Below are positions 12,094 to 16,819 of a stretch of 64,000 nucleotides of DNA, piece after piece (position 1 is the first letter of the stretch; each line of letters starts with the position of its first letter). The stretch is from an uncultured Siphonobacter sp. GTDB lineage: Bacteria > Bacteroidota > Bacteroidia > Cytophagales > Spirosomataceae. The translations under genes were made by a program, and so were the position numbers. The stretch covers positions 124,001-188,000 of the forward strand of contig CAJYIW010000019.1 in NCBI GenBank assembly GCA_913775095.1, written 5' to 3'. Below the pieces are notes generated by a model, which saw only the letters and a program-made list of their open reading frames with translations, ran no database searches and was not told the origin of the DNA.

Positions 12094-12981
12094 TTACCTC
12101 CCCAAAAAAGAATTCAGATTTTCCAGTACTTTTCGGGACAACCGCTGCCGGGCTTCCGTAGTGATACCGGAGGTTCGGTTGTATAAAATGATTCGATCCC
12201 TCTTCAAAAATTCTTCCAGAGCCACGCCCGCTCCGTCTGCATCGAAAATGGCGTACGAGCTGGGATCATTACTTAACCAATCCGTAAAAGCCTCCTGGTC
12301 AAAGGTTAAGCCGAGTGAAGTATTAATCAATATGGAATTTCTCTTTCTGATTTCCAGTAAATCTCTAGTCAGTACCAGGGTGTTCTTGGGTACATGGGTG
12401 GTAATGACGTCACAGGCATTAACCATTTCCTCCAGCGATAAATAGGGGATATCCGTTTCCTTTTTGGTGCGACTGTAATAATAGGGCTGCATCCCGAAAT
12501 GGCGGGCCGTTTGAGCGACCATGGTTCCGAGCGTTCCCAAACCAATGATTCCAATGCTTTTGTTGGTTAGCTCCGTGGGTTCGTTCCGCCATTGGTAGGG
12601 ACCAAAGCCTTTGAAAAGGTTAATCAACTGAGCGAATATGAACTCTACGACTCCCTCATCTCCATAGTCCCGAACCCCTTTCACGGCAATACCCAATTCC
12701 CGGGCTTTCGCAATGTCAACGTTGGCGGCTTGCTCCGTATACAGGCTGCAACACATGGCAATGTATTTAAGCTGAGGCGAGGCTTCCAGAATGGTGGCCG
12801 TGAGGGGTGTTCGCCAGCTTACCAGCACGCAGTCGCTATTCTTGATTCGTTTGATACTTTCTGCTTCACTAGCGGGTATATCATTGTAAATGGAAATCGG
12901 ATTTCGGGAAAGTAAAGCCAGTGTTTCGAGTGTTTCATCCGTTAGCCGGCAAGGGTCGATCAGCGTAATTTTATTGAACAT
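12094..12981 (-). CDS. D-2-hydroxyacid dehydrogenase-like protein with degenerate active site
   Basis: A 295-residue protein of the D-isomer-specific 2-hydroxyacid dehydrogenase fold, with the NAD-binding motif SIGIIGLGTLGTMVAQ near residue 143. The catalytic pieces look altered. The usual INTARG Arg is Leu (INTSLGLTFD), the Glu region reads IFDADGAG, and the catalytic His of the TPHIAG motif is replaced (YNRTSGITTEA). NAD binding seems intact, so it may bind a ligand or have different chemistry. It is single, convergent with the TspO-like gene. Confidence 0.75.
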   Translation of the reverse strand: MFNKITLIDPCRLTDETLETLALLSRNPISIYNDIPASEAESIKRIKNSDCVLVSWRTPLTATILEASPQLKYIAMCCSLYTEQAANVDIAKARELGIAVKGVRDYGDEGVVEFIFAQLINLFKGFGPYQWRNEPTELTNKSIGIIGLGTLGTMVAQTARHFGMQPYYYSRTKKETDIPYLSLEEMVNACDVITTHVPKNTLVLTRDLLEIRKRNSILINTSLGLTFDQEAFTDWLSNDPSSYAIFDADGAGVALEEFLKRDRIILYNRTSGITTEARQRLSRKVLENLNSFLGR

Positions 12982-13146
12982 AAAGCAAAGCGATATCTCG
13001 ATTAATGAAGAACGAGAAATCTGGAATACGAATGGAAAAGACGAAGAAAAGCCAAATCATGAAAACAAATCTGGTTAATCCTAGCGTTGAGGGCAGTGTC
13101 AAGGAGACAGTTACTGGGTATGAAGGAATTACCATGCCAGAAAAAG

Positions 13147-13176
13147 ACAAAGGTCCGCATACTTGCGGACCTTTGT
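13147..13176 (-). terminator. Terminator of the subtilase operon
   Basis: A 13-bp perfect stem (13147-13159/13164-13176) with a 4-nt loop, followed on the minus strand by CTTTTTC. It begins 3 nt after the stop of the small gene at 13180. Confidence 0.85.
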
Positions 13177-13179
13177 ACG

Positions 13180-13434
13180 CTAAATCGGCTCGATGCCTGG
13201 ATTACTGAAAATCGCTTCTGCCGGATGATGCGGGTGATGGGCCAAGTAAACTTCAATCTGTTTAGCTGCCTGAGCATCCACTAAAACGGTGTATAGACCC
13301 TCGCCAGAATCGGTTTCAATAATCCCATAATCCAAATCAATGGAATCAACGGAAAAGGTATATTTATCAGCAATACCTTTCAGGTTGGGTCGAGCTTCTT
13401 TGCTTTGAAATTGAAACAAAATAGTTTTATCCAT
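13180..13434 (-). CDS. Stand-alone propeptide-like protein, putative subtilase inhibitor
   Basis: An 84-residue soluble protein encoded 27 bp downstream of the subtilase. Its C-terminal 40 residues resemble the region just before the catalytic domain of that protease. GLYTVLVDA, then a helix, then AIFSNPGIEPI here parallels STYLVRGEM, a helix, and GIYSDPVIEPF there. In subtilases this segment is the I9-type propeptide, whose C-terminus lies in the active site. This protein ends exactly at the corresponding point. Inference: it is a dedicated inhibitor or folding chaperone of the protease. The similarity is short and judged by eye. Confidence 0.6.
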   Translation of the reverse strand: MDKTILFQFQSKEARPNLKGIADKYTFSVDSIDLDYGIIETDSGEGLYTVLVDAQAAKQIEVYLAHHPHHPAEAIFSNPGIEPI

Positions 13435-13461
13435 CTTTCATAATTCAGTCTGATCAATGTA

Positions 13462-15048
13462 TTAACAACCGCAATCACCCTCTTTGGCCGCCACCTTTTT
13501 TTTCGTAGCCACGGCTCCTTCCGATAGGAACGGAGTGCTTTCCAGGAGCTGATTTTCTATTTCCTTTAAAAATAACTCTTCGATGGCTTCTTCGTCCATG
13601 ACGGGTTTGTGCAAATCCCGCATCGGATCATTCAGCGGAATTTTAGGGAAACGATTATTCTTCCGTAACTGCTCGCAGATTTTGGGGTAGCGTTTGCAGA
13701 AATTAGGCAGAGGACCCAGAACCGGGAACAGCTTCGTTATAATCTGGCAGGTATCAATGATCCCAAAACCCGTTTCCAGATCATACCCCGTTGGGGTCAG
13801 GTCTTCCGCCAGTGTCGTCACCAAGCTCCGAATGGCTGCCGGAGAGGTTACCGGGTTGGCTGGATCGTAACCCCGAACCGTGCGAACGGCCGCAATCACC
13901 CCCGTCGCAACCGGGCAGGCCGCGGATGTGCCTCCGTCATACGCATATACTCCCGAACCTTTGAAGTGCGTATAGGCTGATAAGTCAGGCTTGTTTTTAG
14001 TGATGCAGCCGGGGCCCTGCGTAGAATAGCCAATCCGGACTTTATCTTTTGTTACTCCCGCAATGGTTAATACCGAAGGATGACTGTTGGCTCCGTAAAT
14101 GGCCTTGGTTTCCGTAACCCCGTTGCGGGTACAACGCGAATCAGGACAGTCTGAGCCGCAGTTGCCGGCGGCAAACAGGATATCGGCTCCCGATTTTTCG
14201 AGTTCGCCCACGATTTTGTTGAAGGGGTGGTTGGGATTATGGCTGTAATTTCCGGCATGACCCACCGGAAAATCCCAGCTGGAGTGAAACATGCCCCAGC
14301 TATTATTAACCACGAGCGACTGCTGGGTGGCCTTTTTGACTTTGATTAAATGATTATACGCCTTGATGGCATCGGATAACAGCCCGCTCATGACGGTTGG
14401 ACCGCCAGCAGTTGAGCTGAGCAGGGCAATATCCAGTAAGGTGGCTTTCGGAGCCGCAATCAGCACATCATACGCACACATCGTTCCGTGATCGACGGGC
14501 ATACTTCCCGGGGTTAGGTTTGCCTGGGGAGCCCAGCTGCGGCTGGCATCGAATACCGGTTTTTTGCCTTTTGAAATCAGGTGGTTAATATTTACTCCAG
14601 TATCAACAATGGCTACCAACACGCCCGAACCATCCATTTTTTTACTTTTCAGTTTGGAAACGCAGAGCAGTTTCTCCACGTCGGTATCCGTACCTACGGG
14701 ATTTTTGCCGGGGCAAACCGCAAACGGTTCAATCACCGGATCGGAATAGATACCCACTACGGCATCGGCTTGTCGTGCTTTTTCGTATTGCGATTCGTCC
14801 ATTTCACCCCTGACCAGATAGGTAGAGCCTCGCTCGGAATCATCATACGTGAAAGCCTGGGCATTAAAAATCGAGTGAAAGCCGGAAGAAGGCCGGATTC
14901 CTGATAAGGGGACGGGCGAGAACGTGGGGTCCAGCGTGACTCCCGGAATCGTCAGCACAGGGGCGGGCGACAAACCCATCGTACGCTTTGCGGAATCAGA
15001 AGAAAAGGCTTCAGTGTAAGCCAGCTCAACGATAACATTTTTTTTCAT
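13462..15048 (-). CDS. Subtilisin-like serine protease (S8), apparently cytoplasmic
   Basis: A 528-residue subtilase. The catalytic triad is Asp149 (VAIVDTG), His187 (VDHGT) and Ser375 (GTSAACP), with oxyanion Asn296 (FAAGN). Residues about 60-109 look like an I9-type propeptide. No signal peptide or lipobox precedes it (MKKNVIVELAYTEAF), so it seems to stay in the cytoplasm. Twelve or more cysteines and a C-terminal CGC end are unusual. A linker of about 100 residues follows the catalytic domain. It is co-transcribed with the propeptide-like gene 27 bp downstream. Confidence 0.9.
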   Translation of the reverse strand: MKKNVIVELAYTEAFSSDSAKRTMGLSPAPVLTIPGVTLDPTFSPVPLSGIRPSSGFHSIFNAQAFTYDDSERGSTYLVRGEMDESQYEKARQADAVVGIYSDPVIEPFAVCPGKNPVGTDTDVEKLLCVSKLKSKKMDGSGVLVAIVDTGVNINHLISKGKKPVFDASRSWAPQANLTPGSMPVDHGTMCAYDVLIAAPKATLLDIALLSSTAGGPTVMSGLLSDAIKAYNHLIKVKKATQQSLVVNNSWGMFHSSWDFPVGHAGNYSHNPNHPFNKIVGELEKSGADILFAAGNCGSDCPDSRCTRNGVTETKAIYGANSHPSVLTIAGVTKDKVRIGYSTQGPGCITKNKPDLSAYTHFKGSGVYAYDGGTSAACPVATGVIAAVRTVRGYDPANPVTSPAAIRSLVTTLAEDLTPTGYDLETGFGIIDTCQIITKLFPVLGPLPNFCKRYPKICEQLRKNNRFPKIPLNDPMRDLHKPVMDEEAIEELFLKEIENQLLESTPFLSEGAVATKKKVAAKEGDCGC

Positions 15049-15465
15049 GAGAAATGAAGGATAAAGGTTGAGAGATACTTTTCAACCTTAGTCGCTGGAG
15101 CGACTCCTTCAGGAAACAAGGCATAGAAAAAATTTAGAAGGCAACGTTAGAACCTGGCTTCTGACTTCCGGTCATTACTTTTGGCGTATTGTATCAGGTT
15201 AACTCCTGTGATAAAACACGCAGACTCCTTCGAGATGCCGGAACAAGGGTTCAGAGCTTACAGCCTTAGCCTGTCATCTCGAACGCAGTGAGAGAACTTA
15301 GGCAGGGATGGAGATCATCTTGTACTCATAGGAAGTATAATTGATCAGGAACCTAAGGTTCTTCGCTTCGCTCGGGATGACAGGAGAAAGGGTTTTGGAC
15401 GATACATAACTCCTGGCCTCGTCCTTCAGCATAGGACAAGAAACAGCAAGAATCAGTAGGGAAAA
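15049..15465. other. Gene-free gap with a MITE-like element
   Basis: 417 bp without a supported gene upstream of the subtilase and downstream of the CoA-transferase. Apart from the inverted-repeat element at 15270-15384, I see no promoter box or terminator. Confidence 0.6.
15270..15384. repeat. MITE-like inverted-repeat element, 115 bp
   Basis: Two 33-nt arms (15270-15302 and 15352-15384) are inverted copies with roughly 80% identity around a 49-nt core. Both begin CCTGTCAT at the outer end. Words such as GTCATCCCGAGCGAAGCGAAG are reminiscent of dispersed repeats found between genes in many bacteria. It has no ORF. Confidence 0.7.
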
Positions 15466-16761
15466 TCAATAACGCATCTGCTGTAAACGATCAAAGGCGG
15501 CCCGGTCCAGAGCTTCCCGGTGATCGGGGTGAGCGATGTGAATCAGAGCCCTGGCCCGCTGAGCCAGGTTTTTGCCGTATAAATCGGCCACGCCGTATTC
15601 GGTTACGACATAACGCGTATGAGCACGCGTAGTTACTACGCCCGCTCCCGGTTTGAGTAAGGGAACAATTTTGGATTCTCCCCGGCTGGTTACGGAAGGA
15701 ATGGCGATAATGGCCTTCCCGTTTTGAGACAGGGTAGCTCCGCGAATAAAATCCATTTGTCCTCCCACACCCGAGTACATCCGGGTTCCGATGGAATCCG
15801 CACAAATCTGACCGGTAAGATCTACCTCAATGGCACTGTTAATCGCGGTAACCTTGGCGTTTTGCCGGATTACAGACGTATCATTGACGTACCCAATGTC
15901 CAGCATGGCTACGCCGGGATTATCGTCAATGAAATCATAAAGGTTGCGACTGCCCACGGCGAAACTGGATACTATTTTTCCGGGATGCACTTTCTTATGT
16001 TTTCCGGTAATGATGCCCTTATTCACCAGGGGTAATAAGCCGTCAGAGAACATTTCAGTATGAACGCCGAGGTCGCGGTGGTTTTCCAGGTAGAGTAAAA
16101 CTGCATTAGGAATCCCCCCGATGCCCATCTGAATGCAGGCTCCGTCGTCCACCAGTCCGGCTACATTCCGGCCAATCGCCGATTCGAGGTCCGTGGGCAG
16201 GCTCAGTTCATGTTCGTACAGGGGCCGGTCTTCGTAAGCCATAGCCGTAAACTGCTGAACGTGAACAATGCCGTCGCCATGGGAGCGGGGAACCTGAGGG
16301 TTCACGAGAGCAATCACTTTCTTTGCTGATTCAACGGCAGCTCGGCTCACATCCACTGACGTACCCAGCGAGCAGTAGCCGTGCGGATCGGGCGGTGACA
16401 CCTGAACGATAGCGGTATCCAGCGGCCAGATTCGGTTGCGAAACAAACTCGGGACCTCACTCAGAAAAATAGGCAGGTATTGAGCATATCCCTCTGCCAC
16501 GGCTTTTCTCAGACTTGAGCCTATAAAAATGGCATTCGGGAAAAACGCATGACGAGCTTCGGGTTCGACCAGCGGGAATGTTTTGCCCTCCAGGTGCATG
16601 TGAATGGTGTGTACATCCTCCAGTTCGGAAGCCCGCTGGGCGAGAGCTTCAATCAGCGGCATGGGTGTAGCGGCGGCCGCCTGTATAAAAACGCGTTCGT
16701 GACTTTCAATGTGGCGAACCGCCTCGGCGGGCGATACGTAGCTGTAAGGTTTCATGGTCAT
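15466..16761 (-). CDS. Acetyl-CoA hydrolase/transferase family (4-hydroxybutyrate CoA-transferase-like)
   Basis: A family I CoA-transferase of about 431 residues that moves CoA between acetate and another short acid. The C-terminal half contains the catalytic Glu motif NSAIEVDLTGQ, the GGQMDFIRGA segment and SRGESKIVP. The N-terminal part includes FIQAAAATP and QVSPPDPHGYCSLG. The frame is open to 16797, but the ATGs at 16761 and 16755 (MTMKPYSY) match family starts. The substrate cannot be fixed from sequence (butyrate, 4-hydroxybutyrate, acetate or succinate). No pathway partner lies nearby. Confidence 0.88.
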   Translation of the reverse strand: MTMKPYSYVSPAEAVRHIESHERVFIQAAAATPMPLIEALAQRASELEDVHTIHMHLEGKTFPLVEPEARHAFFPNAIFIGSSLRKAVAEGYAQYLPIFLSEVPSLFRNRIWPLDTAIVQVSPPDPHGYCSLGTSVDVSRAAVESAKKVIALVNPQVPRSHGDGIVHVQQFTAMAYEDRPLYEHELSLPTDLESAIGRNVAGLVDDGACIQMGIGGIPNAVLLYLENHRDLGVHTEMFSDGLLPLVNKGIITGKHKKVHPGKIVSSFAVGSRNLYDFIDDNPGVAMLDIGYVNDTSVIRQNAKVTAINSAIEVDLTGQICADSIGTRMYSGVGGQMDFIRGATLSQNGKAIIAIPSVTSRGESKIVPLLKPGAGVVTTRAHTRYVVTEYGVADLYGKNLAQRARALIHIAHPDHREALDRAAFDRLQQMRY

Positions 16762-16819
16762 CTGTTGTCGAAAGAAAGGGTAAAATTGAACCTCCAACTT
16801 CGTACAAAAAATGAATAAT

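What the first reader, a model, noticed from the sequence alone, without database searches (positions are those of the whole stretch)
13180..15048. Cytoplasmic subtilase paired with a stand-alone propeptide-like inhibitor
The 84-aa product ends AIFSNPGIEPI, and the subtilase's own pre-catalytic segment ends GIYSDPVIEPF; the preceding strand and helix also line up. I9-type propeptides inhibit their protease with the C-terminal tail in the active site, and free I9-type inhibitors are known in fungi. Here protease and free inhibitor would be co-transcribed (27-bp gap). The protease lacks a signal peptide, is Cys-rich and ends in CGC. This suggests a controlled intracellular protease system that I have not seen described.
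Basis: partly seen in the sequence, partly recalled or inferred. Interest (0 to 1): 0.75.

Follow-up and report, generated by a model that had tools for sequence, protein, structure and literature searches.

The report
Bacterial protease with separate propeptide-like partner
A bacterial gene for a protein-cutting enzyme sits beside a small gene whose product resembles the enzyme's own built-in brake, and the same two genes are found together in very different microbes, which suggests an undescribed way of keeping such an enzyme in check.

Summary
On the minus strand an intact subtilase (13462-15048) is followed after 27 bp by an 84-residue gene (13180-13434) and a terminator-like hairpin. The small protein has no Pfam or NCBIfam family. 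The pair is not peculiar to this genome: of 44 related subtilase loci, from 11 bacterial phyla and one archaeon by record title, 40 carry the small gene beside the subtilase; three of the other four are cut by contig ends. In 28 whole genomes the family profile finds one small gene in each of 27, always beside the subtilase; its only extra hits (four genomes) are that subtilase's own N-terminal domain. Small family against that N-domain: E 4e-9, score 50.8, controls at most 13.6. The tail (D/N at P7, I/V at P4, F/I at P1) has the spacing of the malarial SUB1 prodomain. Best explanation: a free copy of the prodomain that inhibits its partner protease in trans. Inhibition, fold and location are untested; structure prediction closed without a model. 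Similarity to classical I9 was not significant. Precedents exist in eukaryotes and in the Aeromonas ASP/ORF2 operon: a new variant of a known kind.

The parts
13462..15048 (-). subtilase (peptidase S8), 528 aa, no evident signal peptide
   Evidence: ORF; PF00082 E 3.7e-23; Asp149, His187, Asn296, Ser375 motifs intact, columns at least 97% conserved in 43 subtilases
14722..15048 (-). N-terminal prodomain of the subtilase (residues 1-109), ending YSDPVIEPF
   Evidence: N-domain family A4 aligned over its length with the small family by hhalign, E 4.4e-9
13762..14631 (-). catalytic domain of the subtilase (residues 140-429)
   Evidence: PF00082 match
13465..13473 (-). C-terminal Cys-Gly-Cys of the subtilase
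   Evidence: sequence; C-x-C or CC in the last 25 residues of 23 of 47 ORFs tabulated (a few of the 47 are truncated, frameshifted or in a wrong frame)
13180..13434 (-). small gene, 84 aa, prodomain-like protein
   Evidence: ORF; family alignment A3 of 39 rows; only hit of the family profile in the own genome at E 0.001
13183..13203 (-). predicted inhibitory tail NPGIEPI (P7 to P1, ending at the C-terminus)
   Evidence: register conserved in 39 family members; spacing as in the PfSUB1 prodomain
13147..13176 (-). intrinsic-terminator-like hairpin, 13-bp stem, right after the small gene
   Evidence: longest stem (next 7 pairs) of 5 terminator-like sites in 12900-15480; shuffles give 2.9 (sd 1.8), so the number of sites is no evidence, the stem length and place are
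15058..15085 (-). possible promoter of the unit (weak)
   Evidence: consensus match 9 of 12; 2 sites found, 2.8 expected by chance, so not evidence by itself

Best explanation
The small protein is a free, separately encoded copy of the subtilase prodomain that works as a reversible inhibitor in trans. The two genes lie in one transcription unit. The protease folds with its own N-terminal prodomain; the small protein then docks where the prodomain docks and lays its C-terminal tail (window: N-P-G-I-E-P-I, P7 to P1) into the substrate cleft, with Ile at S4, Pro at S2 and Phe or Ile at S1, holding the enzyme inactive until the inhibitor is lost, trimmed or outnumbered. Shown by computation: recurrent gene pairing, homology to the own prodomain, tail register, intact catalytic motifs. 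Suggested by sequence: one transcript with a terminator after the small gene. Inferred: binding, inhibition, fold, action inside the cell, and what releases the enzyme.
For: Small gene beside 40 of 44 related subtilases; 3 of the other 4 are cut by contig ends (one of the 40, L037, is a 32-residue fragment at a contig end, E 0.003). Order varies: 33 downstream, 5 upstream, 2 on the opposite strand, so the link survives rearrangement. Family profile in 28 whole genomes: one small gene in each of 27, all in the subtilase locus (26 of the 27 are rows of the profile, so finding them is by construction; what informs is that no other gene in those genomes matched). The only extra hits at E up to 0.01, in 4 genomes, are the paired subtilase's N-domain. 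A gene found by the small profile alone (L124) also has a subtilase of this kind beside it, judged by its motifs. Small family against N-domain family E 4.4e-9, controls far lower. Tail: D/N at P7 in 39 of 39, I/V at P4 in 36 of 39, F/I/L/M/V at P1 in 37 of 39; the PfSUB1 prodomain has D211, V214, D217, the same spacing, D211 capping catalytic helices and V214 in S4 (PMC6993865 section 18). The P1 slot is F in 28 of 39 small proteins but varies in the own prodomains (F in 9 of 37). Distances of small protein and catalytic domain correlate over 37 pairs (r 0.69, highest of 2000 permutations 0.29; near-duplicate loci included). Related subtilases without a small gene exist: L057, whose whole genome has none, and seven same-family homologues, so it is not needed merely for folding in the wider family.
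Against: No binding or inhibition data and no structure. Similarity to a classical I9 profile is not significant (small family 19.3 against 16.4 shuffled and 17.8 reversed, N-domain family 16.4 against 14.0 and 13.2; merged 16.0 against 13.3), and no Pfam model matches convincingly. In 37 of 39 rows the tail runs past the P1 slot by 1-15 residues as cut (7 rows were trimmed by me at the C-terminus and run further), unlike a prodomain that ends at P1; only the window and G192 proteins end there. One subtilase with complete flanks (L057) lacks the gene.
Confidence: 0.72

Rival explanations
1. External chaperone: the small protein mainly helps the protease fold or mature, as ORF2 does for Aeromonas sobria ASP, with inhibition only a passing step.
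For: ASP/ORF2 is a bacterial subtilase whose chaperone is encoded just downstream and whose C-terminal Gln-Pro-Lys sits at the active site (PMC5638518 passages); Pro at the P2 place is shared with 35 of 39 members here.
Against: ASP is called propeptide-deficient (title of that paper's reference 17), whereas these subtilases carry an N-terminal prodomain (37 aligned in A4); relatives without the small gene exist (L057, L010-L016).
Confidence: 0.17
2. The small protein is a dedicated substrate or signal: a prodomain-like carrier whose C-terminal peptide after the P1 slot (often GPPE or GPPQ) is cut off by the subtilase and has its own function.
For: 37 of 39 tails extend past P1, and the next three places are G in 27, P in 20 and P in 21 of 39.
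Against: The window and G192 proteins end at P1, leaving no peptide; the extensions vary in length and sequence; no third gene family was found beside the pair beyond close relatives (ORFs of 90 aa or more, flanks up to 4 kb).
Confidence: 0.06
3. The pairing is real but the small protein docks on another partner, using the prodomain fold as a scaffold.
For: Fold and target are not shown; Pfam I9 membership not met.
Against: Homology to the paired enzyme's own prodomain and conserved tail register; one-to-one occurrence with the subtilase.
Confidence: 0.04
4. Chance tail likeness between two unrelated neighbouring genes.
For: Two short tails compared in one genome would be weak evidence; one chance word of similar identity exists in the window.
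Against: Profile comparison with controls and recurrence at 40 of 44 loci.
Confidence: 0.01

Closest known systems
Stand-alone propeptide-like inhibitors: Pleurotus POIA1, yeast proteinase B inhibitor, Arabidopsis SPI-1, Toxoplasma MIC5, Plasmodium SUB1-ProM
   Same: small protein resembling a subtilisin propeptide and acting on a subtilase in trans; SUB1-ProM is encoded next to subtilisin-like genes and has Asn148 and Val151 at the P7 and P4 places (PMC6993865: abstract, passages and section 18)
   Different: eukaryotic; the paper says the three I9 members lack significant sequence similarity, whereas here similarity to the partner's own prodomain is detectable; no fold or inhibition shown here
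Aeromonas sobria ASP and its external chaperone ORF2
   Same: bacterial subtilase with a partner gene just downstream whose C-terminal residues sit at the active site and which inhibits the enzyme (PMC5638518 passages)
   Different: ASP is extracellular and propeptide-deficient, with operons reported in five genera; here the enzyme keeps a prodomain, has no evident signal peptide, and the pair spans 11 bacterial phyla by record title; the family profile finds no convincing PDB sequence (I did not check that ORF2 itself is in that set)
Bacillus intracellular subtilisin Isp1 and inhibitor IPI (PF12690)
   Same: a bacterial intracellular subtilase with a protein inhibitor
   Different: IPI has an Ig-like fold and, in the completed genomes that paper examined, is not encoded near a subtilisin gene; Isp1 has an 18-residue propeptide (PMC3901451 passages)
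Classical prosubtilisin (I9 prodomain, PF05922)
   Same: prodomain before the catalytic domain; capping Asp (Asp71 in BPN', PMC6993865 section 18)
   Different: here the prodomain family is not recognised by PF05922 (best E 0.23, in 2 of 37 members) and a second, separate copy exists

Membership tests
Peptidase family S8 (subtilase) | S8 catalytic domain with Asp, His, Ser and oxyanion Asn | tested here: met
   PF00082 3.7e-23; all four motifs in the window protein. A strict pattern scan saw all four in 36 of 47 ORFs, the rest being truncated, in a wrong frame or off-pattern; in 43 aligned subtilases all four columns are at least 97% conserved
Inhibitor family I9 (PF05922) | match to the Pfam model | tested here: not met
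   0 families for the window protein; PF05922 not among the matches of 39 members
Inhibitor family I9 (PF05922) | profile similarity to I9 prodomains | tested here: inconclusive
   score 19.3 against 16.4 (30 shuffles) and 17.8 (reversed); merged profile 16.0 against 13.3. I9 alignment made of 21 of the 25 matches
Inhibitor family I9 (PF05922) | C-terminal tail with capping D/N at P7 and hydrophobic P4 and P1 | tested here: met
   39 of 39, 36 of 39, 37 of 39 against PfSUB1 spacing
[quoted passage not shown]
Inhibitor family I9 (PF05922) | tight inhibition of a subtilase | not testable with these tools
   needs protein
Free copy of the partner's prodomain | sequence homology to the N-domain of the paired subtilases | tested here: met
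   hhalign E 4.4e-9, score 50.8, controls 13.6 or less; N-domain is the only other kind of hit in 28 whole genomes
ASP/ORF2 external chaperone system | protease lacks its own propeptide | tested here: not met
   N-domain present
Bacillus-type intracellular subtilisin | very short propeptide (18 residues in Isp1, PMC3901451) | tested here: not met
   about 109 residues before the junction
Intracellular protease | no signal peptide | tested here: inconclusive
   inspection and hydropathy only; no signal-peptide predictor available

The most novel reading that the evidence does not exclude
A previously undescribed prokaryotic two-gene switch: a signal-peptide-less, cysteine-rich subtilase whose activity is gated twice, by a free copy of its own prodomain and by a four-cysteine cluster (window C112 just after the P1 slot, and C297, C301, C306 beside the oxyanion Asn296; Cys in 42, 43, 43 and 43 of 43 aligned subtilases) that could hold the prodomain junction at the active site through metal or disulfides and so make release redox- or metal-dependent.
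Probability: 0.15. Interest if true: 0.8.

Novelty: new variant of a known kind. Interest (0 to 1): 0.6.

Why it matters
If right, it gives prokaryotes a widespread, one-to-one pair of protease and prodomain-type inhibitor; the stand-alone propeptide-like inhibitors named in the passages I read are all eukaryotic. It would give a name to a family of small 'hypothetical' proteins that Pfam and NCBIfam do not recognise, offer a testable regulator for an unstudied subtilase group, and show how a prodomain becomes a separate inhibitor, since homology to the parent enzyme is still visible.

Tried and rejected
Rejected: chance likeness. Rejected: a natural fusion of the two genes in Nonomuraea (L068), suggested by one open frame; reading it showed the subtilase in another frame, so the genes are separate. 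Rejected: a larger conserved operon; all-against-all comparison of flanking ORFs of 90 aa or more found the small gene as the only family shared beyond close relatives. Rejected: dependence on the Cys-Gly-Cys tail; small genes also accompany subtilases without it (for example L028, L032, L035, L044, L045, L046, L048, L053, L055). Rejected: a phage or catalogued defence system; no phage match for one family member, PHROGs nothing convincing for two members, PADLOC only a generic 'subtilase' model, 3.3e-4 for the window protease. Led nowhere: the first genome-contig scan with the 84-aa protein alone (none of 95 stretches confirmed); searches of PDB sequences with the small protein, its family and the N-domain family. 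Nine literature searches, of which I saw the listings and starts of abstracts, showed no description of this bacterial pair; subscription papers are mostly not held.

Limits of counts: the 44 loci were chosen by two subtilase peptide patterns, include near-duplicates (L021/L043, L044/L045, L050/L051, L052/L054, L025/L026/L033) and are largely metagenome bins; phyla are my reading of record titles. A3 used 39 of the 42 small genes then known (window, G192, 40 loci); left out were L037 (cut by the contig end), L050 and L052 (near-duplicates of L051 and L054); seven rows were trimmed at the C-terminus (L019, L024, L026, L033, L042, L053, L055). A4 used 35 of the 40 N-domains cut plus window and G192; I left out L038, L039, L040, L053 and L058, and L036, L042, L048 and L059 gave no usable N-domain. 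The I9 alignment used 21 of 25 matches (four partial ones dropped). The subtilase alignment left out L042, L058, L059 and L060 (wrong frame, truncated or frameshifted). The whole-genome test covered 28 of the 44 loci. Intergenic gaps for L017 (start codon choice), L042 (gap measured to a wrong-frame ORF) and L059 (frameshifted subtilase) are unreliable.

Full report
WHAT IS THERE. The window lies in a 5.65-Mb genome of 27 contigs. On its minus strand are a 528-aa subtilase (13462-15048) and, 27 bp further, an 84-aa ORF (13180-13434). Just after the small gene's stop there is a 13-bp hairpin with a T run (13176-13147, minus strand); it has the longest stem of five terminator-like sites in the stretch, where shuffles give 2.9. 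The flanking genes, a 2-hydroxyacid dehydrogenase at 12094-12981 and an acetyl-CoA hydrolase/transferase at 15466-16797, look unrelated. The subtilase keeps its catalytic motifs. The window small protein matches no Pfam family and only a chance-level NCBIfam model (E 0.1); 39 family members scanned against Pfam give only scattered matches, best E 0.03, and five relatives scanned against NCBIfam give at best 0.23.

THE PAIR RECURS. In the same taxonomic family 2 of 222 genomes have the small gene, the window's own and G192, where it again follows the closest subtilase (62% identical over residues 4-463) by about 50 bp. An alignment of these two subtilases found 44 more loci in species genomes, 41-64% identical in the best segment. 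By record title they belong to Pseudomonadota, Nitrospirota, Bacteroidota, Acidobacteriota, Gemmatimonadota, Actinomycetota, Chloroflexota, Planctomycetota, Cyanobacteriota, Myxococcota, Methylomirabilota and a Methanophagales archaeon (my assignment of titles to phyla; each of these groups has at least one locus with the small gene). A profile built from small genes alone, iterated over the ORFs of these loci, found the gene at 40 of 44 (E 0.003 for the fragment in L037, 1e-7 or better for the others). In L049, L058 and L060 the contig ends where the gene lies in their relatives; L057 has full flanks and lacks it. It is downstream in 33, upstream in 5 and on the opposite strand in 2. Two actinobacterial records in the plasmid collection also have it (L067, L068); the Streptomyces one is annotated as S8 peptidase plus hypothetical protein.

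SPECIFICITY. The family profile was run over the 28 whole genomes that hold 28 of these loci. 27 have exactly one small gene, each in the subtilase locus; G939, the genome of L057, has none. 26 of the 27 genes are rows of the profile, so finding them is expected; what informs is that nothing else matched. At E up to 0.01 there are four further hits, in G915, G918, G933 and G938, all in the N-terminal domain of the paired subtilase (by coordinates). In a sample of 149 genomes of the family of G925, 3 have the gene; the one not seen before (L124) lies next to a subtilase of the same kind, judged by its motifs, which the first patterns had missed. Across 395 sampled genomes of the window's phylum only the window's own has a hit at E 0.001. 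The distribution is sporadic and wide, which suggests transfer of the pair as a unit (inference). Distances of the two proteins correlate over 37 pairs, r 0.69 against at most 0.29 in 2000 permutations.

RELATION TO THE PRODOMAIN. Profile-profile comparison of 39 small proteins with 37 subtilase N-domains aligns columns 2-82 with 8-124, probability 96, E 4.4e-9, score 50.8. Two reversed and 30 column-shuffled controls reach 13.6 at most. A profile of small genes alone also finds the N-domains of many of these subtilases in the same register, weakly in single cases (46 searched; best E 3.4e-6, some above 0.1). The tail reads F/Y-S/A-N/D-P-x-I-E/A-P-F. Counting back from F as P1 gives D/N at P7 (39 of 39), I/V at P4 (36 of 39), P at P2 (35 of 39) and a hydrophobic P1 (37 of 39; two are Thr). 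In the N-domains the Asp is invariant (37 of 37; the scan that counted them was anchored on it) and P4 is I, V, L or M (37 of 37), but P1 varies. In the PfSUB1 prodomain discussed in PMC6993865 (section 18), D211 caps the catalytic helices, V214 fills S4 and D217 is the last residue: the same +3, +3 spacing. The scan of the small tails was likewise anchored on the D/N.

WHAT WAS NOT SHOWN. Similarity to an alignment of 21 classical I9 prodomains from genomes of the same order is weak: 19.3 for the small family against 16.4 (shuffled) and 17.8 (reversed), 16.4 for the N-domain family against 14.0 and 13.2; 16.0 against 13.3 for the merged family. I therefore do not file the protein in I9. PMC6993865 notes (introduction passage) that three known free I9-type inhibitors also lack significant sequence similarity, so this neither helps nor hurts the working model.

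INHIBITOR OR CHAPERONE. The nearest bacterial precedent is ASP/ORF2 of Aeromonas sobria: a downstream gene, C-terminal Gln-Pro-Lys at the active site, IC50 84.3 nM, required for maturation (PMC5638518 passages). That protease is propeptide-deficient. Here a prodomain is present, and relatives without the small gene exist: L057, and seven homologues from the window's own taxonomic family (35-39% identical, L010-L016). Their genomes gave no match to the window small protein, and the family profile on their loci (1.5 kb of flank) matched nothing but, in five of the seven, their own N-domain weakly (E 0.03-0.3). I therefore favour a regulator over an obligatory chaperone. IPI of Bacillus, the other bacterial inhibitor of an intracellular subtilase, differs in fold and was not found near a subtilisin gene (PMC3901451 passages).

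CYSTEINES. In 43 aligned subtilases C297, C301 and C306 are invariant and C112 is present in 42. C297 follows the oxyanion Asn; C112 lies three residues after the P1 slot of the prodomain. A metal site or disulfides at the prodomain junction would be a second control, but nothing here tests it.

VERDICT. Pairing and homology are well supported; the inhibitory role is likely but untested. Nine literature searches listed no description of this bacterial pair; only open-licence papers were searchable. Papers seen: PMC6993865 (abstract, passages, section 18), PMC5638518, PMC3901451, PMC10580911 and PMC9549277 (passages); the others as listings only.

Noticed in passing
L125:2295-5780 (G199); also L010-L013 and L016: Six of seven related subtilases (35-39% identical) from the window's own taxonomic family lack the small gene and are followed by a ~254-aa protein of no known family and the start of an ATP-grasp-like protein; the one scanned in full (L125) resembles ribosomal peptide maturases (TIGR04187, 128 bits against a cut-off of 350). 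The subtilases end in Lys/Glu-rich repeats, perhaps a built-in graspetide-like substrate (speculation).
   Followed up: partly
window C112 (14713-14715), C297, C301, C306: Four near-invariant cysteines, one just after the prodomain junction and three beside the oxyanion Asn, in 42-43 of 43 subtilases: possible metal site or disulfide clamp.
   Followed up: partly
window 13675-13698; C-terminal regions of many subtilases in L017-L056: Repeats of the form C-[RK]-[RK]-[FY]-P-x-[LI]-C in the subtilase tail: one in the window and G192, two in most of the others that have them, three in L034, none in about half of the ORFs tabulated.
   Followed up: no
L028, L032, L035: The archaeal, Kuenenia and Calothrix subtilases have the small gene upstream and lack the CxC tail; the one scanned (L032) carries a PPC domain there.
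   Followed up: no
L015:2785-3057: The seventh same-family homologue (G181) has a shorter subtilase followed by a different 90-aa protein; the small-family profile finds nothing in this locus.
   Followed up: no
L059:4001-5570: The subtilase of a Bacteroidota MAG (CP058707) is split over several frames while its small gene is open; sequencing error or pseudogene not resolved.
   Followed up: no
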